Of a stretch of DNA of 64,000 bases, positions 500-63,750 are shown in pieces. Source of the DNA: Tragulus kanchil. Lineage: Eukaryota > Chordata > Mammalia > Artiodactyla > Tragulidae. Numbering within the stretch: the first letter of the stretch is position 1; each line of letters opens with the position of its first letter. Below the pieces are notes generated by a model. It was not told where the DNA came from and ran no database searches. It saw only the letters and a program-made list of their open reading frames with translations. Where the stretch lies: assembly GCA_022376925.1 (NCBI GenBank), contig JAIOJX010000032.1, positions 202,054,939 through 202,118,938 on the forward strand, in the 5' to 3' direction. The translations under genes and the position numbers were made by a program.

Positions 500-960
500 T
501 CAGGTTACCATACTTGGAAGTTAAGGAATTAGCTTGTAACTGTTTCTTGAGTGCTGGCAGAAGATAAAAGGCTCCTGGGTCAGAGTCAAAAGACTTATTC
601 ATGGCTGAGGAAGCAGGAGGAACACGGGCCTGTTGGCTTCAGTTTCTAATGGCCCCAAAGCCCCACCGGGTGATGTTATGGGCTTGGATGGATGGCTAAA
701 CACACAGTGGGTTGCCTTGCAGCTAAGGAGCAACAAGCTTGCAGGATTTACTGTTTTATAGTAAGAAGTAAGAAAGCGTACTTTTTGTTTTGGAAAGAGA
801 CATTTTCTCATCTCTCAAGGCTGCTTGGTGCAAACATAACTTTGGGAAATGGTTTAGGTAAAATGCAAACAAGGCCCTGCATTCTGGGCAAACCCAGCTC
901 AATGTGTGGAACTTCAAGAGATCAGAGGAGGACTGTCTCTCCCAACAGGCTCACCACTTG
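500..960 (+). repeat. Degenerate LTR-like sequence, copy A
   Basis: Resembles the sequence at 9,310-9,740 in order and spacing: 'gctggcag...cctgggtcagag' near 555-585, a TATA-like 'tgttttatagtaagaag' near 751, and 'ggaggactgtctctccca' near 926. The shared TATA-to-end layout suggests a solo or paired LTR of an endogenous retrovirus. Similarity is patchy, perhaps 60-70% by eye. No coding capacity. Confidence 0.5.
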
Positions 961-3050
961 ATTTTAAACTATCTTGAAAACGTTCGTCACTCAGTCATGT
1001 CTGACTCTTGGCGACCCCATGGACTGTAGCCCACCTGGCTCCTCTGTCCATGGGATTTGCCAGGCAAGAAAGCTGGAGTGAGTTGCTGTTACTTTCTCCA
1101 GAAGATCATCCCCATCCAGGGATGGCACCCAGGTCTCCTGCGATGCAGGCAGATTCTTCACGGATTGAGTCACTAGGGGAAGCGAGGTGTGTGGAAGTGC
1201 AAGAGATCCATGGAGGGCTCTCTCCCTGCAGGCTTACCACTTAATTTTAAACAGTCTTGGCTTCTAGCAAATCTTCATATGAATATGCTGGTCCATTAGA
1301 TACTCTGGGTAGCCTGACTGACAGAGGCAGGGACCAAGATTGTTTAATATGTCGCATACAACATTTAATTAAGGTGTCTCTCACCAGGATCCAAACCAGC
1401 AGGCTGAGGCCAACCTGTGGTATTAGCCTTTACCCTCCAGAGTTTGAATTTAGTGACCTATGAATAATTGTGTGTGTGGAGGGCTGGGGTGGAAGGACCA
1501 GTAAGTTGTGTTTCAAATAACTGGGATGTAGTCTAAGGCCAATCTATTTTCTGTTACAGTGTCCACAGATGTTTAGACTGACCTCTGATTTCTGGTGTCA
1601 TTACAGTGAGTTCCCTTACTTAAAAAGCAACTCCCACACCCAGTGGAAAGCATTCCATGGCCCATTCTTCCCTACATTCTGAAGGGGTGCAGGTCATTCC
1701 AGTTCAGGATTATCGGTTAAGATTTATTTGGATCTCCGTCAGATTTGGTTTAGATCACCGTCACAGTGGTTGGGTTAAACCACATGGGCAGTGAGTGCCG
1801 CTGAGTGGTTGCAGCCTCAGTCACTATACAAGGCATAACCTAAGCCCTCTAGGGTGTCAGGAGAAGCATTTGCATTAGTATCAGTCATACTGATTTGGGC
1901 TTCTCTGGCTGCTCAGTGCTAAAGAATTTGTTTATCAATGGGGAGGACGATTCATAGGAGACTAGGATTCTGGGCAAACCCAGCTCAATGTGTGGAACTT
2001 CAAGAGATCAGAGGAGGACTGTCTCTCCAACAGGCTCACCACTTGATTTTAAACTATCTTGAAAACGTTCGTCACTCAGTCATGTCTGACTCTTGGCGAC
2101 CCCATGGACTGTAGCCCACCTGGCTCCTCTGTCCATGGGATTTGCCAGGCAAGAAAGCTGGAGTGAGTTGCTGTTACTTTCTCCAGAAGATCATCCCCAT
2201 CCAGGGATGGCACCCAGGTCTCCTGCGATGCAGGCAGATTCTTCACGGATTGAGTCACTAGGGGAAGCGAGGTGTGTGGAAGTGCAAGAGATCCATGGAG
2301 GGCTCTCTCCCTGCAGGCTTACCACTTAATTTTAAACAGTCTTGGCTTCTAGCAAATCTTCATATGAATATGCTGGTCCATTAGATACTCTGGGTAGCCT
2401 GACTGACAGAGGCAGGGACCAAGATTGTTTAATATGTCGCATACAACATTTAATTAAGGTGTCTCTCACCAGGATCCAAACCAGCAGGCTGAGGCCAACC
2501 TGTGGTATTAGCCTTTACCCTCCAGAGTTTGAATTTAGTGACCTATGAATAATTGTGTGTGTGGAGGGCTGGGGTGGAAGGACCAGTAAGTTGTGTTTCA
2601 AATAACTGGGATGTAGTCTAAGGCCAATCTATTTTCTGTTACAGTGTCCACAGATGTTTAGACTGACCTCTGATTTCTGGTGTCATTACAGTGAGTTCCC
2701 TTACTTAAAAAGCAACTCCCACACCCAGTGGAAAGCATTCCATGGCCCATTCTTCCCTACATTCTGAAGGGGTGCAGGTCATTCCAGTTCAGGATTATCG
2801 GTTAAGATTTATTTGGATCTCCGTCAGATTTGGTTTAGATCACCGTCACAGTGGTTGGGTTAAACCACATGGGCAGTGAGTGCCGCTGAGTGGTTGCAGC
2901 CTCAGTCACTATACAAGGCATAACCTAAGCCCTCTAGGGTGTCAGGAGAAGCATTTGCATTAGTATCAGTCATACTGATTTGGGCTTCTCTGGCTGCTCA
3001 GTGCTAAAGAATTTGTTTATCAATGCAGGAGACATAGGAGACTGGAGTTC
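881..3050. repeat. Tandem duplication 1: 881-1,966 and 1,967-3,050
   Basis: Units of about 1,085 bases, essentially identical inside. Copy 2 has CC for CCC near 2,030. The end of copy 1 (1,941-1,966, 'gggaggacgattcataggagactag') is a scrambled version of the continuation in copy 2 ('caggagacataggagactggag'). Contains one complete minus Bov-tA SINE per copy. Confidence 0.93.
982..1183 (-). mobile_element. Bov-tA-type SINE (copy at 2,067-2,268)
   Basis: Reverse-orientation ruminant tRNA-derived SINE: 'cactcagtcatgtctgactc', then 'gactgtagcccacctggctc', then 'tccatgggatttgcc'. It sits between two similar ~75-base stretches (see findings). Confidence 0.88.
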
Positions 3051-3196
3051 AGCCCCTAGGTTGGCAAGATCCCATGGAGGAGGAAATAGCAACCCATCCT
3101 GATATTCTTGCCTGGGAAATCCCGTGGACAGAGGAGCCTGGTGGGCTCCAGTCCATGGAGAGTCAGACACAACTGAGAGACTGAGCATGCACGCAT
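2982..3196 (+). mobile_element. Bov-tA-type SINE (5' part also at 1,897-1,960)
   Basis: Starts 'gggcttctctggctgctcag' and ends 'gtcagacacaactgagagac', a forward Bov-tA element. The copy in the first duplicated unit is cut by the junction at about 1,940. Confidence 0.87.
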
Positions 3197-3740
3197 ACTA
3201 ATAGAAAGTTGTGTCTGTCTTTTTGCACACATGTGAAGGAAGGTCCATTTTGGGGGATTAATGTTGATGTCATCAGGTGGATGAGAATAGTTCGAGACCG
3301 GCCATGCCCACACAAATTTTTCTAATTTCCTATCAGGATGACAGATTCAGGAAGAGCTCAGATCACTAGCTAGTTGCCGCTTACCTTAGTTGTGCCCTAG
3401 TGTTTTGTCAGGCTGGATGCCAGGCCTAGGAGGCGAAGAGCATTAATTGTTTCCTTGCTCTTTGCATTTCCTGGGGCCTAAGGTGTTCCTTCTCCAGAGG
3501 GCAAGGTTATTTCTTTCCTCCCACTGTTATATAATCACCATGTCCCACTTAGTACCTGTGATTTCCCCTTTGCTCCAGTTACTGCCTACTACTAATATCC
3601 AGACGTTTCTGCCATGGGCACTGTCAGAAAATTGACAGATACTTATTATGTCTCCCACCTTGGCCCACTGTAGAGGAACTTCACAAGCAATACTCAACCA
3701 GGTGGTCTTTATCTTTACATCACTCCAATGAGAAAATCCA

Positions 3741-5985
3741 AGTAACAACTAGAATAAAGTTGAATCCCCAAAAATCTCTCCCCACCCCCCAGGCTGATCT
3801 GAAGTTGCTATTAGGAAAGACAAACCACGCCCAGGAATAGTCAGGGAAGGTCTCAAATTTTCCAATAGGTTTTTTAACGTTTCACCTGTTTTATCCAGAT
3901 CATTAATCAGTTGGTAACCCGGAGAAGATGAACACCTCATCAGGTGGCCACACTATGTGACTGAGGTGTATGAACCAGGAGGAGGTGAGGGAAGTAGCCA
4001 GAAATCTTTTTGAGAAGATGGCTGAGTGCTTGACAGTATCAGATGCCTGTGGATGGTCTGGAGTGTGAAAGGTCATTGGGTAATTTGACTATTGGGCCAT
4101 TGCGGAAAAAAAAAAAAGAAAAAGGCTGCACCACTGGCAGACTGTAGTTGGTTTGGAAAGCTCAAAATATGACCCAGTTTAGTTTCAAGGGCCACAGTGG
4201 TTTATCTAGAGTCAGATGCTTGGACTGGAGCAGCAGCAGCAGCCCTGTGACCTGGAAAAGTGGCAGGTACTGCAGGCCCCAGGGAGAGCCTGCAGAGGGG
4301 AGCAGAGTCCTAGCAGAGTCAGCTTCCTCACAGTGAGCAGCGGCGGTGCCCCTTTACTGCATACAAGACACACACGGCAGCTTAGGGGAGGCAGCACGAG
4401 TGCACAGTGGACCCGTGGCTTCTGCTCGGGGAACAGAGTCTGTGCCCCCACGGTGGTAGACATGTTTCTATGCCTGGTGTATGGATATATCCCAGTGGCA
4501 GTGGCAGTGGTTACGTTTGATCAGCAGCTTGACTCCCATCAGTCTTATCAGAATACTGACCCTTACTGGGGGTATCTTCATGAGTGACTCAGATTGTCCC
4601 ATTGGCAGACAGCCATGATTCTTTTCCACAGTCCTTAGCTGCATAGAAGGGTGCTTTCACTTTCTTGGTATATAGTCTTCCACGTGACACTGCAGGCAGT
4701 TAGGCCAATGGCAAATGCCTAGGAGTAAATAAAAATGTAACATGTCTGTTTCTTAGGCATATCATCTAAGGCGAAGGCGATGACCTGATTCAGTGCCCTG
4801 TACCAATCGACTCTTAGCAGTCGGCTTTCCGCAAGTTGCTGCCCCAGTGGCTTTTTCCCAAAAACCAGTAACAACTAGAATAAAGTTGAATCCCAAAAAT
4901 CTCTCCCCACCCCCCAGGCTGATCTGAAGTTGCTATTAGGAAAGACAAACCACGCCCAGGAATAGTCAGGGAAGGTCTCAAATTTTCCAATAGGTTTTTT
5001 AACGTTTCACCTGTTTTATCCAGATCATTAATCAGTTGGTAACCCGGAGAAGATGAACACCTCATCAGGTGGCCACACTATGTGACTGAGGTGTATGAAC
5101 CAGGAGGAGGTGAGGGAAGTAGCCAGAAATCTTTTTGAGAAGATGGCTGAGTGCTTGACAGTATCAGATGCCTGTGGATGGTCTGGAGTGTGAAAGGTCA
5201 TTGGGTAATTTGACTATTGGGCCATTGCGGAAAAAAAAAAAAGAAAAAGGCTGCACCACTGGCAGACTGTAGTTGGTTTGGAAAGCTCAAAATATGACCC
5301 AGTTTAGTTCCAAGGGCCACAGTGGTTTATCTAGAGTCAGATGCTTGGACTGGAGCAGCAGCAGCAGCCCTGTGACCTGGAAAAGTGGCAGGTACTGCAG
5401 GCCCCAGGGAGAGCCTGCAGAGGGGAGCAGAGTCCTAGCAGAGTCAGCTTCCTCACAGTGAGCAGCGGCGGTGCCCCTTTACTGCATACAAGACACACAC
5501 GGCAGCTTAGGGGAGGCAGCACGAGTGCACAGTGGACCCGTGGCTTCTGCTCGGGGAACAGAGTCTGTGCCCCCACGGTGGTAGACATGTTTCTATGCCT
5601 GGTGTATGGATATATCCCAGTGGCAGTGGCAGTGGTTACGTTTGATCAGCAGCTTGACTCCCATCAGTCTTATCAGAATACTGACCCTTACTGGGGGTAT
5701 CTTCATGAGTGACTCAGATTGTCCCATTGGCAGACAGCCATGATTCTTTTCCACAGTCCTTAGCTGCATAGAAGGGTGCTTTCACTTTCTTGGTATATAG
5801 TCTTCCACGTGACACTGCAGGCAGTTAGGCCAATGGCAAATGCCTAGGAGTAAATAAAAATGTAACATGTCTGTTTCTTAGGCATATCATCTAAGGCGAA
5901 GGCGATGACCTGATTCAGTGCCCTGTACCAATCGACTCTTAGCGCAGTCGGCTTTCCAGGACTGTGAGTGGTAGTTGCTGCCCCA
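3741..5985. repeat. Tandem duplication 2: 3,741-4,866 and 4,867-5,985
   Basis: Units of about 1,125 bases. Copy 2 has CCC for CCCC just after its start. The last ~50 bases of copy 1 (4,816-4,866) have deletions relative to 5,941-5,990. The unit contains 123-codon open frames in both copies, but no recognisable product. Confidence 0.93.
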
Positions 5986-7925
5986 GAGTGCCATCTGCTT
6001 TTAACCTAGCCGCCCCAGCAGTGAACCGGGCACAGACACAGAGAGACATGGAGAGGAATCTCTGGGAATGAAAACCTCACTGAGTTCCAGGCTTTGCTTT
6101 AGGGGGTGAAGTGGAAGATGGTTTCTTCCAAAGAGACAGCTGCCACTTCATTTTGAAAATCAAGATGCCTTTTAGGGCCAGGCTGGCTGTACTCTTGAAT
6201 ATACCACTTCCATTTTATGAGCGAGCCTTACGGAGCCCTTCCCTTGCTAGCCACAGATTTCAAAGCAGCACTCTCAGGCCAAAGACCATGGGTCAGACCC
6301 TCAGTTTCAACAAGAGCTTGGGAGTAGATTGGTAGTTGGTTCTTTAAAAAGGTGTGTACTTGGGCTTCCCTGGTGGCCCAGTGGGTAAAGAGTCCTCCTT
6401 GTAGTGCAGGGGGTGCTGGTTTGATCCCTGGCCTGGGAGGATCCCACATGCAGTAGAGCAGCTGCACTGGTGTGTCCAATTATGAGCCAGCGCTCTTAAG
6501 CACATGTGCCCAGAGCCTGTACTCTGCAGCGAGAGAGGCCGCTGCAATGGGAGGCCCACATAGGCCAAGGAATAAAGATGGATGAAAATTTTAAAAATTT
6601 AAAAAAAAAAAACAGTAAAAGAGGCAAAAATTAAAAAAAAGAAAGGTGTGTACTTGATGCCTGTGTCCAGCAGATGGCATTGTTATCGTGGCGAACCTGC
6701 CCCCATCCCCACCCTAATTCCATCTTTAAAGCTGTAATGTCTCTTTCTCGTGATTTACGTTGTTTCTCTAGGACCCCTTGGGAGGGGACAGGATCACCTC
6801 TCACTATGTGGCAGTCCAAGGAATTTCACATGTATGAAAAATATCTTTTCCACAGTCCTTAGCTGCATAGAAGGGTGCTTTCACTTTCTTGGTATATAGT
6901 CTTCCACGTGACACTGCAGGCAGTTAGGCCAATGGCAAATGCCTAGGAGTAAATAAAATGTAACATGTCTGTTTCTTAGGCATATCATCTAAGGCAAGGC
7001 GATGACCTGATTCAGTGCCCTGTACCAATCGACTCTTAGCGCAGTCGGCTTTCCAGGACTGTGAGTGGTAGTTGCTGCCCCAGAGTGCCATCTGCTTTTA
7101 ACCTAGCCGCCCCAGCAGTGAACCGGGCACAGACACAGAGAGACATGGAGAGGAATCTCTGGGAATGAAAACCTCACTGAGTTCCAGGCTTTGCTTTAGG
7201 GGGTGAAGTGGAAGATGGTTTCTTCCAAAGAGACAGCTGCCACTTCATTTTGAAAATCAAGATGCCTTTTAGGGCCAGGCTGGCTGTACTCTTGAATATA
7301 CCACTTCCATTTTATGAGCGAGCCTTACGGAGCCCTTCCCTTGCTAGCCACAGATTTCAAAGCAGCACTCTCAGGCCAAAGACCATGGGTCAGACCCTCA
7401 GTTTCAACAAGAGCTTGGGAGTAGATTGGTAGTTGGTTCTTTAAAAAGGTGTGTACTTGGGCTTCCCTGGTGGCCCAGTGGGTAAAGAGTCCTCCTTGTA
7501 GTGCAGGGGGTGCTGGTTTGATCCCTGGCCTGGGAGGATCCCACATGCAGTAGAGCAGCTGCACTGGTGTGTCCAATTATGAGCCAGCGCTCTTAAGCAC
7601 ATGTGCCCAGAGCCTGTACTCTGCAGCGAGAGAGGCCGCTGCAATGGGAGGCCCACATAGGCCAAGGAATAAAGATGGATGAAAATTTTAAAAATTTAAA
7701 AAAAAAAAACAGTAAAAGAGGCAAAAATTAAAAAAAAGAAAGGTGTGTACTTGATGCCTGTGTCCAGCAGATGGCATTGTTATCGTGGCGAACCTGCCCC
7801 CATCCCCACCCTAATTCCATCTTTAAAGCTGTAATGTCTCTTTCTCGTGATTTACGTTGTTTCTCTAGGACCCCTTGGGAGGGGACAGGATCACCTCTCA
7901 CTATGTGGCAGTCCATGAATGGGAT
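5746..7925. repeat. Tandem duplication 3: 5,746-6,844 and 6,845-7,925
   Basis: Units of about 1,097 bases. Copy 2 has AAAA for AAAAA and one missing base in 'aaggcgaaggcg' within its first 150 bases. The tail of copy 1 (6,817-6,844) is scrambled relative to 7,914-7,950. Its first ~240 bases overlap duplication 2, so that sequence occurs three times (4,621, 5,746, 6,845). Each copy holds a + strand CHR SINE. Confidence 0.93.
6362..6640 (+). mobile_element. CHR-type SINE (copy at 7,459-7,737)
   Basis: Begins 'gggcttccctggtggcccag', contains 'gatccctggcctgggagg', and ends 'gcccacataggccaaggaat' followed by an A-rich tail. This is a tRNA-Glu-derived SINE of cetartiodactyls. Confidence 0.87.
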
Positions 7926-9070
7926 AATCTTTGACACATGTATGATAAATACAATTATGCTTTCAGCAGTGGCAGCCACAGCAGTAGTTTCAAGGACGCT
8001 ACCCACAAGACCTTTTCCCTTCCCTCCCCTGATAGGAACTTGGCCTAGACCCCGTGAGTTGAATTTGGGTGCTTTCCCCTCTCTTGGAACTAACAAGTCT
8101 GGTCGGCCTGCATCGGGAGCTACAGTGACAGCCATCCAGAGATTATGCCTTTCCCAGGCAGGGGCTGCTGGATGCTGGGGGCAGGAGGAAGCCTTTTTTC
8201 CACCCCTGGATAGATTGGCACCACTTCTTCCCAATGTACTTGTCCTGTGTCTGGGGAGCCCCTGGGCAAGCTACCGTGTCTTCCCTGCAGTCCTCGGCAC
8301 CTGTGGTAACCCCTGGACCTCGCAAACTGTCTCCTGCTCTGGTGGATTGAGTAGGGTCCTGCTGTATCCAAGAGGACCTTGAGTCTCTCTCCTCCCCGAC
8401 TTCCCCACCATGCTAGGATGACTGTGTATGGCCTTTAGTCCCCTTTAGGGACAGCGAGACCTTAAACCCTCCTTTAATCATCTTACTCTTTAAAGTAGCT
8501 AAGACTGTGGCAACGGCGAGGGATCATGGGATATGGAGGAACAGAGTGGCTCTGAGCCTCTCAGCAAGGCATACTTTTAGCTTCAGTACATGGTTTACCC
8601 AAGGCCCTTTCAGTATTTTCATTCTACCCAGATTTCTATATTGAACAGCAAGGTCCTTAGAGCTGGCACCATTTAGGTAAACTTTGAGAGCTCCTCGATT
8701 CGTCAGCTGCATCCGTGTTGCCTCTTGTCTGGGGCTGTTCACCTTACTGTTCCATATCTGTGGTTACATCCTTTCCTCCTTTTTCCCAGAAGCATGTGAG
8801 CAGTAACCAAGACAGCATTCAGATGGTTTGGTTCAGTTCTTCTTCTCTCCACTCAGCCTCATTAATAGGTAGGACAGTGGAAGAGTCTCACTACCTCCCT
8901 TCCTCACCACTTGGACAAGAGCTTTTACCACCAGATTCCAAGGAATCTACTGTTATCCCCTAACCCTATCCCCAAGGCCCTTGTCCTTTCTCTTAAGCAA
9001 AGCTATGACTCAAAGCTATATGTTTGTCACCCAAAACTGTCACGGTTCGAGGTTTTAGTTTTACCCTGTG

Positions 9071-9290
9071 TGCGTGCGTGCTTAGTTGCTTCAGTTGTGC
9101 CTGATTCTTTGTGACCCTATGGACTGTAGCCCACCAGGCCTCTGTGTCCATGGGATTCTCCAGGCAAGAATACTGGAGTGGGTTGCCGTGCCATCCTCCA
9201 GGGGATCTTCCTGACCCAGGGATCAAACCCACATATTCTCATCTCCTGCACTGGCAGGCAGGGTCTTTAGCACCAGCGCCATGTGGGAAG
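9071..9290 (-). mobile_element. Bov-tA-type SINE (copy at 10,171-10,389)
   Basis: 'gttgcttcagttgtgcctga', 'gactgtagcccaccaggcct' and 'caagaatactggagtgggtt' mark a reverse Bov-tA element next to LTR-like copy B. Confidence 0.88.
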
Positions 9291-9299
9291 TTCTTATTT

Positions 9300-9740
9300 T
9301 AGCCTACTTGCCAACTGTTACATTAGCCTGTCACTGTTTTATGGATGCTGGCAGGAGACATAGTCCTGGGTCAGAGACAGCCAACTTTATTTCTCACAGT
9401 ACAGCAAGCAGGATGTGCGTCAGTATGTTGGCATCCGTTCCCCTTGCCCCCAGTGCCCCGCATGAGGCCCTGGGTCTGGATGAATGCTGCACGTGCGGTG
9501 GGGGGCATCCCAGCTGCGGAGTACTGAGCTTGAGGAATCTGCTGTTTTATAAGAAGCAGTAAACAAGACTGCTTTCTGTCCCAGAGGAAGATTCTGTGCC
9601 TTCCTTTAGGTTGCTGGAAGTGTACCCTGAGAAACGGCCTGAATAAAGGTCCTTGCATTCTTGGCATGTCCTGCAAAGTCTGTAGAAACAAGAGAGAGTC
9701 TGGGAGGACTGTCTCTCCCACCACAAACAGGCAGTAAAAG
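9300..9740 (+). repeat. LTR-like sequence, copy B (duplicated at 10,399-10,839)
   Basis: Contains a TATA-like 'ctgttttataagaagc' near 9,540, then about 100 bases on an AATAAA in 'cctgaataaaggtcc' near 9,642, then 'gggaggactgtctctccca' near 9,704. This order (TATA, AATAAA, short tail) is typical of a retroviral LTR. It is related to copy A at 500-960 in the same orientation. The family name is not certain; a ruminant ERV class II LTR is my guess. Confidence 0.55.
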
Positions 9741-11588
9741 CCAAGAGGAAGTGTGAATATTACTACTAGTTTTACTTGAAGTAAAAACCTCACACCCCTT
9801 TATCAGTGTGTTTCCAAATCGACTTGGAAACTAACCACAGATGTTGAGAGAGTTTAAATAGTGCCCTGCATGTGCAGGACTTGATGGTCTACAGGGTCCT
9901 CTCACACGGGTCACCTGATCCCTCCCTGTGAGTGGGACTGGCATTCTCCCACTCAGCCTCATTAATAGGTAGGACAGTGGAAGAGTCTCACTACCTCCCT
10001 TCCTCACCACTTGGACAAGAGCTTTTACCACCAGATTCCAAGGAATCTACTGTTATCCCCTAACCCTATCCCCAAGGCCCTTGTCCTTTCTCTTAAGCAA
10101 AGCTATGACTCAAAGCTATATGTTTGTCACCCAAAACTGTCACGGTTCGAGGTTTTAGTTTTACCCTGTGTGGGGCGTGCTTAGTTGCTTCAGTTGTGCC
10201 TGATTCTTTGTGACCCTATGGACTGTAGCCCACCAGGCCTCTGTGTCCATGGGATTCTCCAGGCAAGAATACTGGAGTGGGTTGCCGTGCCATCCTCCAG
10301 GGGATCTTCCTGACCCAGGGATCAAACCCACATATTCTCATCTCCTGCACTGGCAGGCAGGGTCTTTAGCACCAGCGCCATGTGGGAAGTTCTTATTTTA
10401 GCCTACTTGCCAACTGTTACATTAGCCTGTCACTGTTTTATGGATGCTGGCAGGAGACATAGTCCTGGGTCAGAGACAGCCAACTTTATTTCTCACAGTA
10501 CAGCAAGCAGGATGTGCGTCAGTATGTTGGCATCCGTTCCCCTTGCCCCCAGTGCCCCGCATGAGGCCCTGGGTCTGGATGAATGCTGCACGTGCGGTGG
10601 GGGGCATCCCAGCTGCGGAGTACTGAGCTTGAGGAATCTGCTGTTTTATAAGAAGCAGTAAACAAGACTGCTTTCTGTCCCAGAGGAAGATTCTGTGCCT
10701 TCCTTTAGGTTGCTGGAAGTGTACCCTGAGAAACGGCCTGAATAAAGGTCCTTGCATTCTTGGCATGTCCTGCAAAGTCTGTAGAAACAAGAGAGAGTCT
10801 GGGAGGACTGTCTCTCCCACCACAAACAGGCAGTAAAAGCCAAGAGGAAGTGTGAATATTACTACTAGTTTTACTTGAAGTAAAAACCTCACACCCCTTT
10901 ATCAGTGTGTTTCCAAATCGACTTGGAAACTAACCACAGATGTTGAGAGAGTTTAAATAGTGCCCTGCATGTGCAGGACTTGATGGTCTACAGGGTCCTC
11001 TCACACGGGTCACCTGATCCCTCCCTGTGAGTGGGACTGGCATTTTTGTCTTCCTCGGGTAGATGAGAAAAGAGAGCCTGAGCTGGAGAGGGTGAGTGAC
11101 TGCAGGGTCATGCCTGCACAGTGGCTGGTGGAGCTGGGACCGGATCTCTCTTGTTTTCCTGCAAATCTGTTTTGTCACACTGCTTGGAAGTTATTTTCTC
11201 TGTTTGACGTCACCATGTCAGCGTCCTCACTTCATGCCAAGCCATGTGTTCAGCAGATGCAGAAAGAGATTTACCCTTCTGCCTAGCTATTAGACCCAGT
11301 GAGTAAAACAAACAAACTAAAGAACCCTGCATTTTTGGTGAGAGGGTGTGTCGCCCCTCATGTTGTAGGTCAGTGATGACTGCTTATAGAAGCTGACCTG
11401 GGGATGGGTCGTCACCAGAAAGCAACTGCTCTTCTGAGCTGCAGGGAGAGAGTGACACTTAGAAGTGGCCAGGTTCTCTGGTGGATAACTGGCTTGCCAC
11501 TGTAAAGCCCCCATGGAAGGTGTGAAAGGTTGACCGTGGTTGTGTAGAATAACAGGATTTTTGCATAGTGTTTAAAAGCTAATGTGTT

Positions 11589-12448: not shown

Positions 12449-12616
<168 letters not shown>

Positions 12617-13598: not shown

Positions 13599-53031
<39,433 letters not shown>

Positions 53032-54068
53032 GGCCACTGCGAGGACTCTCGCCTGAGTCCAGGAACTTTGTGGGGATGGCCAGCTGTGAAGCCAGTCAGT
53101 CCCTGGACCTTCGCAGCTGTGGAGGAAGCTGCCCGAGGAGCCTGCCGACTTCTGCGGCCACCCGGCACGCCGCCCCGGGAGCATACCCGGAGCCCAGCCC
53201 GCTGGAGAGCGCCGCGGCCCCCTCCGTCTGCACAGGCTCGCCCACCCGGACTGACCAAGCCACGGACGACAGCCTCTCTCAGCCCGTCCCCCGCGTGTGC
53301 AGAGTGAGGACGAGTGAGGGAGAGGATGGGGTGTGACTGTGGGGGGCGTGTGCGTAGCAGCATGCGTGCGTCCGTGTGCCTGTGGCCTGTAGACCGTGAC
53401 TGGACAGCTGAGAGTCATAAACTCTAAGAAACTGTCCAGGGCTCCAGCGGTATTCTCTGGTGTTATTTTTCTTACTGGATTTAGTTTGTAAGATTCATCG
53501 GAAATTCTCAGCCCTCCAAGAAGGCGGACAGCACCACCTTGGGATCACCCGCGGCAGGGCAGACGGGACTGTCAGGGCGGTGCTGCCCTGCTGCCCACAA
53601 GTGAGCAGATACCCTCGGCTGAGTGCCCTGAGCTGGAGGCCCCGGCCGCAGGCTGGCCTCTGCCCACAGTGCGCGGGGCCTGGGCCGCAGCCCTCAGTGC
53701 CTCAGCCCTCGGTTCCTCGCTGTCTGGGAACGTCAGCCGTGTGGGGCTGGCGGGAGGCATGGCGCCCTGTCCTTGGCTGCTGTGTGTTTGCAGGGCCTGT
53801 GAGCCACGGTGGTTTCTGGCCACCGGTCCCTTTCCCTCCGCGTCCAGCCTGGCTGCGAGGGCGGCCCCCCTGCCTTCTCCAGATCCCTGGAGGCCTTCCC
53901 CTCTCCTAGCACCCAGGGTGAATGTGCGGCAGCTCCGGGCCGTGGCAGGCTGGGCTGCGGTACCAGTGGGTGTCAGGGATTGGGCTGCTCTGGCCTTTCT
54001 GGGCTAGTGCTTCTGTCACTCACCCCCACCCGGGTGCCAACCGCCTCCCTCCGGACTCGCTCCCGCAG

Positions 54069-54170
54069 CTTCTACCTCTTCCACCCTCTGGCTTATGGGA
54101 TGGTGGGTCCCTGGCCGAGGACCCCAAGTCCAATGGCAGGACTCAGGTGGCTGGAATCATGGGACTTTGA
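54069..54170 (+). pseudogene. POMT2: POMT2 exon 21, frameshifted duplicate copy
   Basis: Same acceptor and start as 52,926, but four bases are missing: one C in the CCCC before TGG, two bases in CCCCCGAAG, and one T in the final TTTT before GA. The frame is lost after residue 647. All losses shorten or adjoin homopolymers, which suggests sequencing error at a contig start. Confidence 0.85.
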
Positions 54171-54762
54171 GGCCACTGCGAGGACTCTCGCCTGAGTCCA
54201 GGAACTTTGTGGGGATGGCCAGCTGTGAAGCCAGTCAGTCCCTGGACCTTCGCAGCTGTGGAGGAAGCTGCCCGAGGAGCCTGCCGACTTCTGCGGCCAC
54301 CCGGCACGCCGCCCGGGAGCATACCCGGGCCCAGCCCGCTGGAGAGCGCCGCGGCCCCCTCCGTCTGCACAGGCTCGCCCACCCGGACTGACCAAGCCAC
54401 GGACGACAGCCTCTCTCAGCCCGTCCCCCGCGTGTGCAGAGTGAGGACGAGTGAGGGAGAGGATGGGGTGTGACTGTGGGGGGCGGGTGCGTAGCAGCAT
54501 GCGTGCGTCCGTGTGCCTGTGGCCTGTAGACCGTGACTGGACAGCTGAGAGTCATAAACTCTAAGAAACTGTCCAGGGCTCCAGCGGTATTCTCTGGTGT
54601 TATTTTTCTTACTGGATTTAGTTTGTAAGATTCATCGGAAATTCTCAGCCCTCCAAGAAGGCGGACAGCACCACCTTGGGATCACCCGCGGCAGGGCAGA
54701 CGGGACTGTCAGGGCGGTGCTGCCCTGCTGCCCACAAGTGAGCAGATACCCTCGGCTGAGTG

Positions 54763-56945
54763 CCCTGAGCTGGAGGCCCCGGCCGCAGGCTGGCCTCTGC
54801 CCACAGTGCGCGGGGCCTGGGCCGCAGCCCTCAGTGCCTCAGCCCTCGGTTCCTCGCTGTCTGGGAACGTCAGCCGTGTGGGGCTGGCGGGAGGCATGGC
54901 GCCCTGTCCTTGGCTGCTGTGTGTTTGCAGGGCCTGTGAGCCACGGTGGTTTCTGGCCACCGGTCCCTTTCCCTCCGCGTCCAGCCTGGCTGCGAGGGCG
55001 GCCCCCCTGCCTTCTCCAGATCCCTGGAGGCCTTCCCCTCTCCTAGCACCCAGGGTGAATGTGCGGCAGCTCCGGGCCGTGGCAGGCTGGGCTGCGGTAC
55101 CAGTGGGTGTCAGGGATTGGGCTGCTCTGGCCTTTCTGGGCTAGTGCTTCTGTCACTCACCACACTTCCCCCAGTCGGGCGTTTACCCCTCGACGTTTTC
55201 CTCAAAGACCCAGAGCACCAGACATGCCTCAGAGCTTCTCCTTCCCACTTTGACGCCGAACAAGCAGCCCAGAGCTGTTCCTTTTACTTCCTCCCCAGAT
55301 GAAAGAGAGAAAGAAAACCCTTGCGCTAGAACGGAACTAACCCAAGACCAGCCCTGAGCGTGCCTCCGTCTTCCTGGAGCATGACAAAATATTTTGTCTC
55401 AGAGGACAGTTACGCGTCAGGGTTTAATGATGCATCTCTGCTGCACTCCACCTTCCCTCCGCTGTAGCCCCCCCCAGCTCCGCCGAGGTCAGAGCTCTTT
55501 TGAGCATCTTTGCTAGGCGGTTGCCACGGAGACTGGAAATTGGTCCCAAGGACAGGCTGTGCTACCTACTGGGTGGTGGGGAGGGAAGCTTCTGGCCTTG
55601 CTCCGACGTTCAGACGGCCATCATTAATGTTAATAGAGGAAATGCAGCCCCAGCAAAGGCAAGGCAGGTCTGTTAATTAGATCTGGAGCCTGATGACCTC
55701 CCGCGGCCAGGGCTGCAGCCCTTTTGACTTCCCCCAGCAGGAAGCGCTGCCGCTGCTGGGTGCTGAGTCTGGGCTGCTTGCTTAATTGCATTTCTGGAAG
55801 GGAGGGAGAGCAGGGATGGAGAATTTCCTCTGTTCTCTCATCCTCTTCCTTCCCCTGAGCTGGAGGCCCCGGCCGCAGGCTGGCCTCTGCCCACAGTGCG
55901 CGGGGCCTGGGCCGCAGCCCTCAGTGCCTCAGCCCTCGGTTCCTCGCTGTCTGGGAACGTCAGCCGTGTGGGGCTGGCGGGAGGCATGGCGCCCTGTCCT
56001 TGGCTGCTGTGTGTTTGCAGGGCCTGTGAGCCACGGTGGTTTCTGGCCACCGGTCCCTTTCCCTCCGCGTCCAGCCTGGCTGCGAGGGCGGCCCCCCTGC
56101 CTTCTCCAGATCCCTGGAGGCCTTCCCCTCTCCTAGCACCCAGGGTGAATGTGCGGCAGCTCCGGGCCGTGGCAGGCTGGGCTGCGGTACCAGTGGGTGT
56201 CAGGGATTGGGCTGCTCTGGCCTTTCTGGGCTAGTGCTTCTGTCACTCACCACACTTCCCCCAGTCGGGCGTTTACCCCTCGACGTTTTCCTCAAAGACC
56301 CAGAGCACCAGACATGCCTCAGAGCTTCTCCTTCCCACTTTGACGCCGAACAAGCAGCCCAGAGCTGTTCCTTTTACTTCCTCCCCAGATGAAAGAGAGA
56401 AAGAAAACCCTTGCGCTAGAACGGAACTAACCCAAGACCAGCCCTGAGCGTGCCTCCGTCTTCCTGGAGCATGACAAAATATTTTGTCTCAGAGGACAGT
56501 TACGCGTCAGGGTTTAATGATGCATCTCTGCTGCACTCCACCTTCCCTCCGCTGTAGCCCCCCCCAGCTCCGCCGAGGTCAGAGCTCTTTTGAGCATCTT
56601 TGCTAGGCGGTTGCCACGGAGACTGGAAATTGGTCCCAAGGACAGGCTGTGCTACCTACTGGGTGGTGGGGAGGGAAGCTTCTGGCCTTGCTCCGACGTT
56701 CAGACGGCCATCATTAATGTTAATAGAGGAAATGCAGCCCCAGCAAAGGCAAGGCAGGTCTGTTAATTAGATCTGGAGCCTGATGACCTCCCGCGGCCAG
56801 GGCTGCAGCCCTTTTGACTTCCCCCAGCAGGAAGCGCTGCCGCTGCTGGGTGCTGAGTCTGGGCTGCTTGCTTAATTGCATTTCTGGAAGGGAGGGAGAG
56901 CAGGGATGGAGAATTTCCTCTGTTCTCTCATCCTCTTCCTTCCCC
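54763..56945. repeat. Tandem duplication 12: 54,763-55,852 and 55,853-56,945
   Basis: Units of 1,090 bases, identical by eye. The block overlaps duplication 11, so about 390 bases occur three times (about 53,630, 54,767 and 55,857). The junction is 'cttccttcccc|tgagctgg' against 'cttcctteccc'-type continuation 'cttccttccccctcgcc'. Confidence 0.92.
55520..55533 (+). promoter_or_regulatory. X-box (RFX-type) motif
   Basis: GTTGCCACGGAGAC fits the RFX consensus of two half-sites with a two-base spacer (GTTGCC-AC-GGAGAC). The second copy is at 56,610-56,623. It lies in the presumed POMT2 3' UTR. A motif match alone does not prove function. Confidence 0.4.
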
Positions 56946-58858
56946 CTCGCCACTCCCCTCCTCCTCCCCACCAGGCCGAGTTGGTTTCTTCTCAGCTGGG
57001 TGTGGGCAGCCAACTGGGTGGGCTCTCCTGGGGCTGGGATGCGGGAGGCCCTGTGCTAGACTGCCTTCACTGAACAGCGGCCCCACGACAGCATCTGGGA
57101 GGTGGCTGGTGTTTCCCTGTGCCTTCTTCCTTCCCAAGGAACTTGTTGGAAGGGAGGTGCCCCGAGAGCAGGCAGCCATTCTGAGTGAGGGCAAGGAAGG
57201 AGAAGGCTCCGCCGAGCTCCTGCCTGCCGCTCCCTCCTAATCTGGCCACAGGGGAATAAAAGCTTCCTTTGTCTCTTCCACTGTTCTCCAAATATGGGAG
57301 GAGGACCGTGTGCCCACTCCCTCCGCGTCCTCTTTGCTCAGGCTGGCGGACACTTCCGAGGCTTCCCGCAGCTTCAAGTCCCGGATCTGTTGCTGGGGGA
57401 GGCTGGGGAGAGGGGCTGTTGGAACGGCGCTGTGAATACGGGCTCCAGCCTCCGGGCAGTGTGACAGGTCCCACAGACTTGCTGGCGGAGGAAGGAGGCA
57501 TTTGTTAGCTCAACCTCCAGTCAGCTTCTTAAACCACATTTTACATGAAAAAAAGTTTTCCACAGATAATCAGAGGCCGTTTACTTTTGTAATAAATAGC
57601 TCTTATTTTGAATGCTATGCTGTTCTTGTTGTACTTAATTGAATCTGACTTGCCCTCTGGCTCCAGAAAGAAGAGAAGAATGTTTTGAGAGCAAGAGCCA
57701 TTCCTTGGTGTCTGGAGGCTGAAGCCTTTCTGAGTCCAGCTCAGGTCCTGGGCTGGGCAATAGAATACGGGCATGTGCCTTAAAGTTCTTGAGTAATGTT
57801 CTGGGGCTGAAGGGTACTTCTGGCCTTGCTCCGACTTAATTGCCCCAGCAAAGGCAAGGCAGGTCTGTTAATTAGATCTGGAGCCTGATGACCTCCCGCG
57901 GCCAGGGCTGCAGCCCTTTTGACTTCCCCCAGCAGGAAGCGCTGCCGCTGCTGGGTGCTGAGTCTGGGCTGCTTGCTTAATTGCATTTCTGGAAGGGAGG
58001 GAGAGCAGGGATGGAGAATTTCCTCTGTTCTCTCATCCTCTTCCTTCCCCCTCGCCACTCCCCTCCTCCTCCCCACCAGGCCGAGTTGGTTTCTTCTCAG
58101 CTGGGTGTGGGCAGCCAACTGGGTGGGCTCTCCTGGGGCTGGGATGCGGGAGGCCCTGTGCTAGACTGCCTTCACTGAACAGCGGCCCCACGACAGCATC
58201 TGGGAGGTGGCTGGTGTTTCCCTGTGCCTTCTTCCTTCCCAAGGAACTTGTTGGAAGGGAGGTGCCCCCAGAGCAGGCAGCCATTCTGAGTGAGGGCAAG
58301 GAAGGAGAAGGCTCCGCCGAGCTCCTGCCTGCCGCTCCCTCCTAATCTGGCCACAGGGGAATAAAAGCTTCCTTTGTCTCTTCCACTGTTCTCCAAATAT
58401 GGGAGGAGGACCGTGTGCCCACTCCCTCCGCGTCCTCTTTGCTCAGGCTGGCGGACACTTCCGAGGCTTCCCGCAGCTTCAAGTCCCGGATCTGTTGCTG
58501 GGGGAGGCTGGGGAGAGGGGCTGTTGGAACGGCGCTGTGAATACGGGCTCCAGCCTCCGGGCAGTGTGACAGGTCCCACAGACTTGCTGGCGGAGGAAGG
58601 AGGCATTTGTTAGCTCAACCTCCAGTCAGCTTCTTAAACCACATTTTACATGAAAAAAAGTTTTCCACAGATAATCAGAGGCCGTTTACTTTTGTAATAA
58701 ATAGCTCTTATTTTGAATGCTATGCTGTTCTTGTTGTACTTAATTGAATCTGACTTGCCCTCTGGCTCCAGAAAGAAGAGAAGAATGTTTTGAGAGCAAG
58801 AGCCATTCCTTGGTGTCTGGAGGCTGAAGCCTTTCTGAGTCCAGCTCAGGTCCTGGGC
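56745..58858. repeat. Tandem duplication 13: about 56,745-57,849 and 57,850-58,858
   Basis: Units of 1,105 bases. One C/G difference lies near 58,268 and one G/C-type change near 58,044 region frames. Copy 1's tail (57,752-57,815) is a badly degraded version of 58,857-58,930, and copy 2's start has a ~40-base gap ('ctccgac...ccccagc'). It carries the AATAAA candidate in both copies. Confidence 0.9.
57591..57596 (+). promoter_or_regulatory. Candidate POMT2 polyadenylation signal AATAAA
   Basis: AATAAA in 'ttgtaataaatagctc', followed by a T/G-rich stretch ('gctgttcttgttgta') about 25-40 bases on, as expected of a cleavage site. The second copy is at 58,696-58,701. Another AATAAA lies upstream in 'ggggaataaaagc' near 57,255. 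Confidence 0.45.
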
Positions 58859-60978
58859 TGGGCAGGTGACCCTGAGTACATATCGGGGGGCATGTAGGCC
58901 CTCTCACAGAGAAGGTTACTTGAGTAATGTTGGTTGTTATTTGCATTTATTTAAAGTGCTCCAAACTAAGTAGGAAGCTGGACCTTGTTTATTCCTCTTG
59001 GAACCTCCCCACATAAGTACAAAAAGAAACGAGAGTGTGAGTCACCGTTGTCCACTTCTGAGACAGCCGAGTGGCCCGGCACTGCAGCCTCAGTGTCCAC
59101 TCCTCACCAGGGGCCCCGCCTTGACAGGCATCTTCTGATCAGGAGCCATGGAAACGTCCAAACGCGTTTTGGACGGTAGCTGGAAGAGGAGAGGAGTCCA
59201 GTGGACTGTGAAACGGGGTCTTCTGGGTTGTCTGACTCCCTCTCCGGCTTAGGTTCAGGAGGAGCTGGAGGCAAGGGAGGGGACCCTCTAGATCCTCGGG
59301 AGACAGAGCTGACAAGCAGGGGAGAGAAGGACCGAGCTGCTCTTAACCGGCATGGGCTAGCTTACTACCTCCCGCCGGTCTGTGACCCTGGATCCTCAGA
59401 AAGGCCCAGTGACGTCAGTGCTGCCTTTGTCCCCGCCTCACCCAGGAGAGACTGGATTACTTACCCCAGGTGCCACGATGAGTGAGCAGGAAAGCTGGGA
59501 CTCGGCCCGGAGCTGGGCTTTGTTGGCTTCTCCAGCCTGGTCCTGGACCAGAAGCACTGCCCAGGCCAGCCCGGATCCCACGGGTGCAGATGAGCGTGTT
59601 CCTTTGTACCATCTTCCTAAAGCATGGACAGAGCATCCAGGGCCCAGAGTTGGCTGGGGCACCCGGACCCAGTGTTTTTCTGAGAAGAAGAAAGCCCTGG
59701 TTTGTAGCATTCCAAGTTCATGGTGTACGTACTCCACCACTGCCTGTTTCGGGCCGCCAGCCTGATGTTCCCGCATGAGAAACTGGGAAGGTGGGCACAG
59801 TTGGCTGTCCCAAGCCATCTCCGGGCCAGCTCCAGCACGCTGTGGACCCAGACCTGGTTACCTTGGCTTGGTCTGAACTATGAATGCAGCTCTTGGTGTC
59901 TGGAGACTGAAGCCTTTCTGAGTCCAGCTCAGGTCCTGGGCTGGGCAGGTGACCCTGAGTACATATCGGGGGGCATGTAGGCCCTCTCACAGAGAAGGTT
60001 ACTTGAGTAATGTTGGTTGTTATTTGCATTTATTTAAAGTGCTCCAAACTAAGTAGGAAGCTGGACCTTGTTTATTCCTCTTGGAACCTCCCCACATAAG
60101 TACAAAAAGAAACGAGAGTGTGAGTCACCGTTGTCCACTTCTGAGACAGCCGAGTGGCCCGGCACTGCAGCCTCAGTGTCCACTCCTCACCAGGGGCCCC
60201 GCCTTGACAGGCATCTTCTGATCAGGAGCCATGGAAACGTCCAAACGCGTTTTGGACGGTAGCTGGAAGAGGAGAGGAGTCCAGTGGACTGTGAAACGGG
60301 GTCTTCTGGGTTGTCTGACTCCCTCTCCGGCTTAGGTTCAGGAGGAGCTGGAGGCAAGGGAGGGGACCCTCTAGATCCTCGGGAGACAGAGCTGACAAGC
60401 AGGGGAGAGAAGGACCGAGCTGCTCTTAACCGGCATGGGCTAGCTTACTACCTCCCGCCGGTCTGTGACCCTGGATCCTCAGAAAGGCCCAGTGACGTCA
60501 GTGCTGCCTTTGTCCCCGCCTCACCCAGGAGAGACTGGATTACTTACCCCAGGTGCCACGATGAGTGAGCAGGAAAGCTGGGACTCGGCCCGGAGCTGGG
60601 CTTTGTTGGCTTCTCCAGCCTGGTCCTGGACCAGAAGCACTGCCCAGGCCAGCCCGGATCCCACGGGTGCAGATGAGCGTGTTCCTTTGTACCATCTTCC
60701 TAAAGCATGGACAGAGCATCCAGGGCCCAGAGTTGGCTGGGGCACCCGGACCCAGTGTTTTTCTGAGAAGAAGAAAGCCCTGGTTTGTAGCATTCCAAGT
60801 TCATGGTGTACGTACTCCACCACTGCCTGTTTCGGGCCGCCAGCCTGATGTTCCCGCATGAGAAACTGGGAAGGTGGGCACAGTTGGCTGTCCCAAGCCA
60901 TCTCCGGGCCAGCTCCAGCACGCTGTGGACCCAGACCTGGTTACCTTGGCTTGGTCTGAACTATGAATGCAGCTCTTG
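58808..60978. repeat. Tandem duplication 14: 58,808-59,891 and 59,892-60,978
   Basis: Units of 1,083 bases; one G/A difference near the start of copy 2 ('ctggagactg'). The first ~55 bases also occur at 57,700, so this stretch is present three times. The junction is 'cagctcttggt|gtctgg' against 'cagctcttggtcacgg'. Confidence 0.92.
59410..59417. promoter_or_regulatory. Palindromic CRE, TGACGTCA
   Basis: Full 8-base CREB/ATF site in the intergenic stretch downstream of POMT2, repeated at 60,493-60,500 by duplication 14. It could belong to a regulatory element between POMT2 and the next gene; unproven. Confidence 0.4.
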
Positions 60979-61675
60979 GTCACGGTCCATTAAAAGGAGG
61001 GAGGCAGTGGGGCACAGAGGTCTGGTGGAGGGGCCACGTCCATCCTGAGGTCAAATGCTGGCCAGTTACTTAACGTCATTGCCTTTCCTCAACCGTAAAA
61101 CAAGGGCACAAGAGATGGGATCTACTTTGTGGATCTATGAGAATGAAGAAAGTTAATGATGCAGAGTCCTTCGCACAGTGTCTGGACACAGGTGCTCAGT
61201 ACATGCTAGCTCTTTACTGGTGGTGGCAAAGCAGCCTCCATGACACCATTGGCTCTAGAACAGTGCTTGCCCCCTCTTCTCAATTAGAGCCTCTTGCCCA
61301 GATTGTGGGCAGATGCCAGGATGGGGGCTCCTGTGACTCTCCCCAGCCCCTCACATGCAAAGTCTGTGCCTGTCTCTTGATTGGAATACACCACCCGGAC
61401 AGCTGAGGCTCAACCAGGTTCTTTCACTCAGGGAGATTAGAGAGCACTCGGCTCTCTCCTCCTGCCTCCGCCTGGCTTTAGAGAGGCAGAACGAGTGCAG
61501 ACTCCACCGCCTACTAGCTATCGACTAGTAAGGCCATCGACTCACTAGCCTGGCAGGCTTCGGGCCCTGCCCAAAGCAGAAAAGAGGGCAGCAGGGTACC
61601 GAGTGCAGACTGTGGCCAGGAAGTGCAAACTGGGTGGAGTGGGAAGCCTTAGTCAGGAGCCAGCTGGCCTGCACG

Positions 61676-63750
61676 GAGCCCTGGGCATCTGGGCACTGAA
61701 AGGTGAAGGTCACCAGAGGCATACGAGGCCTTCCCCCACGACCTGATGTAGGGCCATGGGACGCTAACCTGGGAGTCCAATCCCTGAGCCCCCCAGACTT
61801 GTCCCTTCAGTCCCCAGGCCCTCTGTGTTCTCACGTGGGAATCTCCTGGACACCTCAGGACACACGCCAGCTGCCTTCCAGCTTCGTGCCCCTGCTCCAT
61901 CCCAGCAACCTCCATGGTGTAGGGAGGGATGGAGTTAGGTGTGCTTATAAGTCCTGAGTCCCTGGAAGAGAGAAAGCAGCAAGATGGTTTCGCCAGGCTT
62001 GCCTGGGAGCAAGAAGGCGTTCTGCTGAGGCCCTCAGGCCAAATTAGGGTGAGCGGGAAAAGTTCTAGAATGCAAGAATTCCACACTCCATGCCTAGCAA
62101 AGAGTTGGTCATGGAGCCTCAGCCTGTTCATGACCGAAGGCCCTGCCGCCTTGTGCCCACGGAACAAAGCCGGTGAGCTGAGAGGCTCCTGGAGACCCAT
62201 GACCAGCCCCTTTACTGCGCAGCTGAGGAAACTGAGAGAGAGGCGGGCGGACGGAGAGGAGACAGGTGTGGCGACTCGACATAATGAAAGATAAATGAGG
62301 ATCTTGCTTTTTACAACCTGAACTACTCGGACTGGGCTAGGACCCAAGGAACTTTCATGGTTGAAAGAGGAAGGTTCTGGTCTGATCGACAGGTGACCAA
62401 CCTCGCACCCTGAATGGCAAACAGGAGATTCTGTTTCCTGAACTTCAAGTTAAAGAAATAAACAGTACTCCTATTTAAATATTTACGAAAGTCTATTAAA
62501 AGCACTGAATAGTCCAGTATTCTTGCTTTACCCTCTTAATGTCCAGATAGTGTGGTGGAAAGCTCTCCGTTTCTGCACCTGAGACCCCATCCTGGCCAAG
62601 CAGAGCTCAGACTAGTTACAGCTGGGGCTGGCAGATTTCCAAAGAGGGAGCCTCCAGATAACCTGGCCCTGGCCGGACATGACTGTGATCTTGCCCTGTC
62701 CCTAAAGCCGAGAGCCCTGGGCATCTGGGCACTGAAAGGTGAAGGTCACCAGAGGCATACGAGGCCTTCCCCCACGACCTGATGTAGGGCCATGGGACGC
62801 TAACCTGGGAGTCCAATCCCTGAGCCCCCCAGACTTGTCCCTTCAGTCCCCAGGCCCTCTGTGTTCTCACGTGGGAATCTCCTGGACACCTCAGGACACA
62901 CGCCAGCTGCCTTCCAGCTTCGTGCCCCTGCTCCATCCCAGCAACCTCCATGGTGTAGGGAGGGATGGAGTTAGGTGTGCTTATAAGTCCTGAGTCCCTG
63001 GAAGAGAGAAAGCAGCAAGATGGTTTCGCCAGGCTTGCCTGGGAGCAAGAAGGCGTTCTGCTGAGGCCCTCAGGCCAAATTAGGGTGAGCGGGAAAAGTT
63101 CTAGAATGCAAGAATTCCACACTCCATGCCTAGCAAAGAGTTGGTCATGGAGCCTCAGCCTGTTCATGACCGAAGGCCCTGCCGCCTTGTGCCCACGGAA
63201 CAAAGCCGGTGAGCTGAGAGGCTCCTGGAGACCCATGACCAGCCCCTTTACTGCGCAGCTGAGGAAACTGAGAGAGAGGCGGGCGGACGGAGAGGAGACA
63301 GGTGTGGCGACTCGACATAATGAAAGATAAATGAGGATCTTGCTTTTTACAACCTGAACTACTCGGACTGGGCTAGGACCCAAGGAACTTTCATGGTTGA
63401 AAGAGGAAGGTTCTGGTCTGATCGACAGGTGACCAACCTCGCACCCTGAATGGCAAACAGGAGATTCTGTTTCCTGAACTTCAAGTTAAAGAAATAAACA
63501 GTACTCCTATTTAAATATTTACGAAAGTCTATTAAAAGCACTGAATAGTCCAGTATTCTTGCTTTACCCTCTTAATGTCCAGATAGTGTGGTGGAAAGCT
63601 CTCCGTTTCTGCACCTGAGACCCCATCCTGGCCAAGCAGAGCTCAGACTAGTTACAGCTGGGGCTGGCAGATTTCCAAAGAGGGAGCCTCCAGATAACCT
63701 GGCCCTGGCCGGACATGACTGTGATCTTGCCCTGTCCCTAAAGCCGAGAG
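61676..63750. repeat. Tandem duplication 15: 61,676-62,712 and 62,713-63,750
   Basis: Units of 1,036 bases, the shortest of the set, identical by eye. The junction is 'gccgagagccctgggc' against 'gccgagagccctagtgg'. Long minus-strand open frames (232 and 255 codons) inside it resemble no known protein. Confidence 0.93.

What the first reader, a model, noticed from the sequence alone, without database searches (positions are those of the whole stretch)
881..63750. Fifteen independent tandem duplications, all about 1.04-1.14 kb
Seen directly: fifteen places where a block is followed at once by a near-identical copy, with offsets 1,085, 1,125, 1,097, 1,099, 1,114, 1,076, 1,086, 1,085, 1,085, 1,126, 1,137, 1,090, 1,105, 1,083 and 1,036. 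The blocks share no sequence with each other and their borders fall anywhere in exons, introns and repeats. Known tandem duplication processes do not give one fixed length at fifteen unrelated sites in 64 kb. A fixed-length contig-end overlap left unmerged does. I infer about 16 kb of false sequence.
Basis: partly seen in the sequence, partly recalled or inferred. Interest (0 to 1): 0.8.

Follow-up and report, generated by a model that had tools for sequence, protein, structure and literature searches.

The report
Unmerged overlaps in a genome assembly
The fifteen doubled stretches of about 1.1 kb are real in the sequence file but almost certainly not in the animal: they look like overlaps that a long-read assembly program failed to merge, and they falsely double six exons of one gene.

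Summary
All 15 tandem pairs are present (98.8-100% identity; core offsets 1036-1137 bp, mean 1095), and a 16th is cut by the window start. About 16.4 kb, 26% of the window, is second copy. It is almost certainly an assembly artefact. (1) 74 of 95 differences between copies lie within 150 bp of a copy end (27% expected). (2) There the seam-side copy loses bases: 137 lost, 6 gained. (3) Junk between three pairs is a garbled version of the true flank. (4) POMT2 lies here; 6 of 20 exons found are doubled, none is doubled in the 153 related proteins listed, and the doubled last exon is frameshifted in the seam-side copy. Best model: neighbouring consensus units share one assembly-graph node (1024 read bases in wtdbg/wtdbg2, recalled) and were joined without merging it. 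The program is inferred. One result also fits biology: seams carry excess microhomology (2.6 bp against 0.7 by chance). I read it as spurious few-base overlaps accepted by the joining step; microhomology-mediated duplication could give the same, but not the seam-side errors or the fixed length.

The parts
1..1242 (.). Pair 0 (not in the finding): tail of first copy 1-173, second copy 174-1242, seam 173/174
   Evidence: 1-173 identical to 1070-1242, offset 1069; the rest of the first copy would lie left of the window (inferred)
881..3050 (.). Pair 1: copies 881-1970 and 1967-3050
   Evidence: offset 1085; 5 of 6 differences within 21 bp of the tail seam, the sixth 60 bp from the head seam
3733..5957 (.). 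Pair 2: copies 3733-4830 and 4860-5957, 29 bp between them
   Evidence: the 29 bp aligns to the sequence after copy 2, better than 4,859 of 4,863 random places
5745..7915 (.). Pair 3: copies 5745-6818 and 6844-7915, 25 bp between them
   Evidence: the 25 bp aligns to the sequence after copy 2, better than 4,855 of 4,855 random places
8843..11044 (.). Pair 4: copies 8843-9945 and 9944-11044
11444..13687 (.). Pair 5: copies 11444-12569 and 12559-13687; doubles a POMT2 exon
18534..20705 (.). Pair 6: copies 18534-19629 and 19621-20705; doubles a POMT2 exon
   Evidence: second copy lacks 12 bases near its start
22997..25169 (.). Pair 7: copies 22997-24083 and 24091-25169
28797..30970 (.). Pair 8: copies 28797-29885 and 29882-30970, identical; doubles a POMT2 exon
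31615..33797 (.). Pair 9: copies 31615-32714 and 32701-33797; doubles a POMT2 exon
39218..41473 (.). Pair 10: copies 39218-40348 and 40347-41473; doubles a POMT2 exon
52884..55161 (.). Pair 11: copies 52884-54024 and 54028-55161; doubles the last POMT2 exon, frameshifted in copy 2
   Evidence: runs of C and T shortened in copy 2 next to the seam
54763..56945 (.). Pair 12: copies 54763-55855 and 55853-56945, identical
56737..58864 (.). Pair 13: copies 56737-57759 and 57842-58864, 82 bp between them
   Evidence: the 82 bp holds a garbled piece of the sequence after copy 2, then a garbled piece of the sequence before copy 1; random places scored as well 37 and 6 times of 4,871
58809..60980 (.). 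Pair 14: copies 58809-59897 and 59892-60980
61676..63754 (.). Pair 15: copies 61676-62718 and 62712-63754, identical
12482..54171 (+). POMT2 (protein O-mannosyltransferase 2): 20 exons found; doubled at 12482/13600, 18933/20009, 28862/29947, 32081/33166, 39825/40951, 52924/54067
   Evidence: tblastn with mammalian POMT2 and frame-by-frame scan of the + strand

Best explanation
The pairs are an assembly artefact. A long-read assembler laid this region out as a chain of separately computed consensus units (1.8-13.7 kb between seams here), each sharing one graph node with the next. At 16 of these shared nodes the joining step did not find the full overlap and pasted the units with the node present twice, on at most a spurious match of a few bases. 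Node length is set in raw-read bases, so a fixed length in deletion-prone reads becomes a slightly longer, slightly variable length in the genome. The best candidate is the wtdbg/wtdbg2 design with its consensus step wtpoa-cns, whose node is 1024 read bases (recalled): 1095/1024 = 1.07. SHOWN: the pairs, their narrow length, base loss on the seam side, garbled flanks at three seams, doubled exons absent in the relatives examined. INFERRED: separate consensus units, the node, noisy deletion-prone long reads, the failed join. LEAST CERTAIN: the program (about 0.55). The confidence given is for an artefact of unmerged unit overlaps, whatever the program.
For: Length: 15 offsets, mean 1095.4, SD 24.7, range 1036-1137, at largely unrelated sites. 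Position: 74 of 95 differences within 150 bp of a copy end against 27% expected; leaving out pair 13, 51 of 71 (from the same output); 11 of the 12 pairs that differ in that alignment have such differences. Direction: within 150 bp of a copy end the seam-side copy lacks 137 bases, has 6 extra and 14 substitutions; 14 of 15 seam sides with a net length change are losses. At pair 11 the losses include CCCC to CCC and TTTT to TTT. Between-copy junk at pairs 2, 3 and 13 aligns to the true flanks better than to nearly all random places (4 of 4,863; 0 of 4,855; 37 and 6 of 4,871 as good). Gene: 6 of 20 POMT2 exons found are doubled; in the 153 related proteins listed each of the six occurs once or not at all, never twice, 33 of them brought in by a query with those exons doubled. 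The last exon is intact in the interior copy (35/35) and frameshifted in the copy that starts about 40 bp after the seam (16/35 in one frame). No copy contains another pair's seam.
Against: Seam microhomology is above chance: 39 bp over 15 seams, mean 2.6, against 0.70 in 400 random error-free joins of the window's own sequence; the total was not reached in 100,000 resamples (pairs 3, 10 and 11 redone). Plain pasting does not predict this; a joiner that accepts a short spurious overlap does, but that step was not tested. Three pairs (8, 12, 15) are identical throughout and so carry no seam errors. Pair 1's tail runs the other way (6 bases gained). Which copy is in error is an assumption except in the coding exon of pair 11. 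For wtdbg2 in particular: of 15 neighbouring node pairs 5 overlap, and 2 of them (359 and 399 bp) exceed the 256-base default that I recall; its paper was not held, and no listing or passage that I saw describes this failure. No reads or second assembly were available. Random real duplications would also show no nesting in 11% of simulations, so that observation is weak.
Confidence: 0.94

Rival explanations
1. Same class of artefact from other software: another assembler, gap filler or chunk-wise polisher that leaves overlaps of about 1 kb. (This lies inside the best explanation; its 0.4 is part of the 0.94.)
For: The seam errors and doubled exons do not name a program. Failed merging (PMC9635638, passages seen) and incorrect gap filling (PMC9516828, passages seen) are reported with false duplication.
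Against: Unit lengths run from 1,795 to 13,678 bp with no evident common step, which does not fit fixed windows. Ordinary contig overlaps would not be expected to have one length.
Confidence: 0.4
2. Real tandem duplications made by a microhomology-mediated process with a fixed step of about 1.1 kb.
For: Seam microhomology is above chance, as expected of microhomology-mediated joining. Head-to-tail orientation, near-identical copies.
Against: Seam-side base losses and garbled flanks have no biological reading that I know of. Sixteen events in about 47.6 kb of unique sequence, all with near-identical copies, all one length. Six exons of one conserved enzyme doubled, none doubled in the 153 relatives listed.
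Confidence: 0.02
3. Heterotype false duplication: the two copies of each pair are the two parental haplotypes placed side by side.
For: A few interior differences exist: 12 substitutions and 11 indel bases in about 12 kb, a possible heterozygosity level. Heterotype errors were the larger share in two of the three older assemblies of PMC9516828, the hummingbird being the exception (passages seen).
Against: Haplotype differences would be spread along the copies, not gathered at their ends, and would not be one-sided losses. They give no reason for one length. Three pairs are identical.
Confidence: 0.03

Closest known systems
Homotype false duplication (Ko et al. 2022, PMC9516828; passages seen)
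   Same: One locus represented twice because read errors leave sequences uncollapsed; creates false exon gains.
   Different: Here there is no gap between copies, the length is fixed, and pairs sit every few kb inside continuous sequence. [quoted passage not shown]
wtdbg/wtdbg2 layout with wtpoa-cns consensus (Ruan and Li 2020; paper not held; the two-program structure seen in passages of PMC12037172)
   Same: Builds contigs from raw noisy reads as chains that share graph nodes of fixed read length (node size recalled), then computes consensus.
   Different: I saw no printed description of failed node merging leaving 1.1 kb doublings. Two of 15 neighbouring node pairs overlap more than the recalled default allows.
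Merging failures in hybrid assemblies (bald notothen study, PMC9635638; passages seen)
   Same: Failed merging of overlapping sequences doubles single-copy genes.
   Different: There genes are doubled when long-read contigs and short-read scaffolds are merged, not short fixed-length blocks at internal seams.
Tandem duplications of BRCA1-deficient tumours (tandem duplicator phenotype; recalled, search listing only)
   Same: Head-to-tail duplication, with microhomology at junctions (recalled).
   Different: Recalled spans are about 10 kb or more and sites are spread over the genome. No seam-side sequence errors are expected.

Membership tests
Homotype false duplication | One real locus behind both copies (read depth low over the copies) | not testable with these tools
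   No reads available
Homotype false duplication | Sequence errors distinguish the copies | tested here: met
   74 of 95 differences within 150 bp of a copy end; 137 bases lost against 6 gained on the seam side. Three of 15 pairs show no difference.
Homotype false duplication | Assembly gap between copies (usual, not obligatory, in PMC9516828) | tested here: not met
   The window holds only A, C, G and T. The paper also allows connection by unsupported sequence. I therefore say it works like this kind and leave membership open.
Homotype false duplication | No heterozygous k-mers between copies | not testable with these tools
   Needs read k-mers
wtdbg/wtdbg2 node-overlap artefact | Overlap set by a node of 1024 raw-read bases (recalled) | tested here: inconclusive
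   Mean 1095, SD 25, i.e. 1.07 x 1024; fits reads with a net loss of about 6.5%, as the seam-side losses suggest in direction, but the read type is unknown
wtdbg/wtdbg2 node-overlap artefact | Neighbouring nodes overlap by at most 256 read bases by default (recalled) | tested here: inconclusive
   5 of 15 neighbouring pairs overlap: 359, 236, 399, 248, 94. Two exceed 256; setting and version unknown.
wtdbg/wtdbg2 node-overlap artefact | Assembly made with this program | not testable with these tools
   The record is unnamed; the own-genome search did not complete
Microhomology-mediated real tandem duplication | Junction microhomology above chance | tested here: met
   39 bp over 15 seams against 0.70 per seam by chance
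Microhomology-mediated real tandem duplication | Both copies are equally good sequence apart from the junction | tested here: not met
   Seam-side losses and garbled flanks

The most novel reading that the evidence does not exclude
The duplications are real: a microhomology-mediated process in this animal or its cultured cells copied fixed steps of about 1.1 kb in tandem at sixteen sites in under 50 kb, very recently. The microhomology excess is the only result that leans this way.
Probability: 0.02. Interest if true: 0.95.

Novelty: not a real feature. Interest (0 to 1): 0.22.

Why it matters
If the whole assembly looks like this stretch, a quarter of it is false second copy, genes carry false doubled exons, and counts of tandem duplications, gene length and genome size are wrong. 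The signature is simple to scan for: tandem pairs near 1.1 kb whose differences sit at the seams as base losses. A scan of public long-read assemblies for it would show how common the failure is.

Tried and rejected
Fixed-window polishing or stitching: rejected as the main reading because seam spacing is irregular (1,795-13,678 bp). Tandem repeat arrays: Tandem Repeats Finder lists nine rows of short arrays (it looks for periods up to 500 only). Structured RNA: no Rfam match at gathering score. tRNA-like hits at 6366, 7463 and 25807 are probably SINE-derived (recalled); the first is doubled by pair 3. Nesting test: no copy contains another pair's seam, but under 15 random real duplications none is nested in 11% of simulations, so this is only weak support.

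Literature: ten searches. One search was about tumours; the other nine were about wtdbg2, ruminant assemblies or false duplication. Each listed only its best papers, and no listing that I saw names this failure of wtdbg2; many relevant papers are not in that library, so this absence means little. Passages only were seen of PMC12037172, PMC9516828, PMC10372904, PMC8228171, PMC9635638, PMC8290290 and PMC7227121; those passages do not describe it. The wtdbg2 paper was not held.

The first seam test used a wrong anchor for pairs 3, 10 and 11 and gave microhomology 2, 0 and 0 there; redone it gives 0, 2 and 0, so the total of 39 is unchanged. The tblastn listing missed one copy of the exon at 28862; the frame scan found both. 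Two ways of placing the seam of pair 9 give different edge differences (three near the start, none); counts in this report are those, where the seam was placed to maximise the alignment score.
Full report
What is there. A self-comparison of the window finds all fifteen tandem pairs. The main offset of each pair lies between 1036 and 1137 bp, mean 1095.4, SD 24.7. A sixteenth pair is cut by the window start: bases 1-173 are identical to 1070-1242, offset 1069. Neighbouring blocks sometimes overlap, so a few stretches occur three times, which corrects the statement that the blocks share nothing. The summed offsets of the fifteen pairs are 16,431 bases, 25.7% of the window.

Where the copies differ. 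I took each seam as the end of one unit and the start of the next, placed it to maximise the alignment score, and aligned the overlap with the seam junk included. There are 95 differences in the fifteen overlaps; 74 lie within 150 bp of an overlap end, where 27% would be expected (differences come in bursts, so the binomial p-value printed there overstates the case). Leaving out the noisiest pair, 13, it is 51 of 71. Three pairs (8, 12, 15) have none; of the other twelve, eleven have differences near an end (pair 9 does not). Near the ends the copy next to the seam lacks 137 bases, has 6 extra and 14 substitutions. Of the 15 seam sides with a net length change, 14 are losses and one (pair 1, tail) is a gain. 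At pair 11 runs of C and T are shortened in the seam-side copy. Interior differences are few: 12 substitutions and 11 indel bases in about 12 kb.

Junk at the seams. Pairs 2, 3, 7, 11 and 13 have 29, 25, 7, 3 and 82 bases between the matching parts. At pairs 2 and 3 these bases align as a shortened version of the sequence that follows copy 2. At pair 13 the first part is a garbled version of the sequence after copy 2 and the second part a garbled version of the sequence before copy 1. As a control the same junk was aligned to random places in the window: as good a score occurred 4 of 4,863 times (pair 2), 0 of 4,855 (pair 3), and 37 and 6 of 4,871 (pair 13, right and left flank). That is what two poorly supported unit ends placed side by side would look like. 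The 7 and 3 bases at pairs 7 and 11 are too short to judge.

The gene. The plus strand carries POMT2, protein O-mannosyltransferase 2 (matches to solved fungal-type mannosyltransferases; mammalian relatives; tblastn). Of five frames scanned against Pfam, one matches PMT and one PMT_4TMC above the curated cut-off, one PMT_4TMC below it, one nothing, and one, on the other strand, GCV_H. Twenty exons were found; the first coding exon was not. Six of the twenty are present twice, each inside one of the pairs. In the 153 proteins listed by two searches (the best 120 of 623 and of 2,556 matches), each of the six exons occurs once or is absent, never twice, at a 50% ungapped identity threshold; absent counts are 10, 15, 10, 1, 2 and 25. 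The last exon reads through in the interior copy (35/35) but is frameshifted in the copy that begins about 40 bp after a seam (16/35 in one frame).

Mechanism. The facts fit a chain of separately computed consensus units that share one fixed-length graph node with the next unit and were joined without merging it. Errors are then expected at unit ends and dominated by the error type of the reads; lost bases point to deletion-prone reads such as nanopore (general knowledge, not tested). [quoted passage not shown] A sika deer genome made with wtdbg 1.2.8 from PacBio reads (PMC10372904, passages) shows that ruminant assemblies of this family exist; nothing links it to this window.

The result that does not fit neatly. 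Seams carry short matches between the two joined ends: 39 bp in total over fifteen seams, mean 2.6, against 0.70 in 400 random joins (pairs 3, 10 and 11). The cleanest seams have 2, 4, 3, 2, 3, 6 and 7 bp (pairs 4, 8, 9, 10, 12, 14, 15). A joiner that looks for an overlap only in a narrow corner at the unit ends would pick the longest chance match there, a few bases (inference). Microhomology-mediated real duplication would also give this. Seam-side errors, the fixed length, sixteen events in under 50 kb and doubled exons of a conserved enzyme weigh against the latter.

Not available: reads, the assembly record, a second assembly, and the own-genome search. The program name is therefore inference; the artefact is, in my judgement, close to certain.

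Noticed in passing
window, whole: The window is mammalian and looks ruminant: dispersed repeats of up to about 280 bp read like bovine tRNA-derived SINEs (recalled). The POMT2 model is 93.6% identical to sheep over 667 positions, while sheep and Bos are 97.9% identical over 632, so the source may lie outside the Bovidae, perhaps a deeper ruminant branch; consensus errors could also lower the figure.
   Followed up: partly
43454-43975 (-): A reading frame with a glycine cleavage H-protein domain (Pfam GCV_H, E 5.7e-34) on the opposite strand inside a POMT2 intron; probably a processed GCSH pseudogene.
   Followed up: partly
39637-39663 and the matching place in copy 2, about 40763-40789: Six clustered substitutions between the copies of pair 10, far from the seam, five of them to A in copy 2. 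This could be a polishing error or an allelic difference.
   Followed up: no
52884-58864: Seams are close together (1.8-2.1 kb) where G+C is highest, up to 63%, but also near the window start, where it is 46-49%. Join failure may depend on composition or local coverage.
   Followed up: no
1-12481: The first coding exon of POMT2 was not found upstream of the second with four mammalian proteins and three; it may lie left of the window or be missing.
   Followed up: partly
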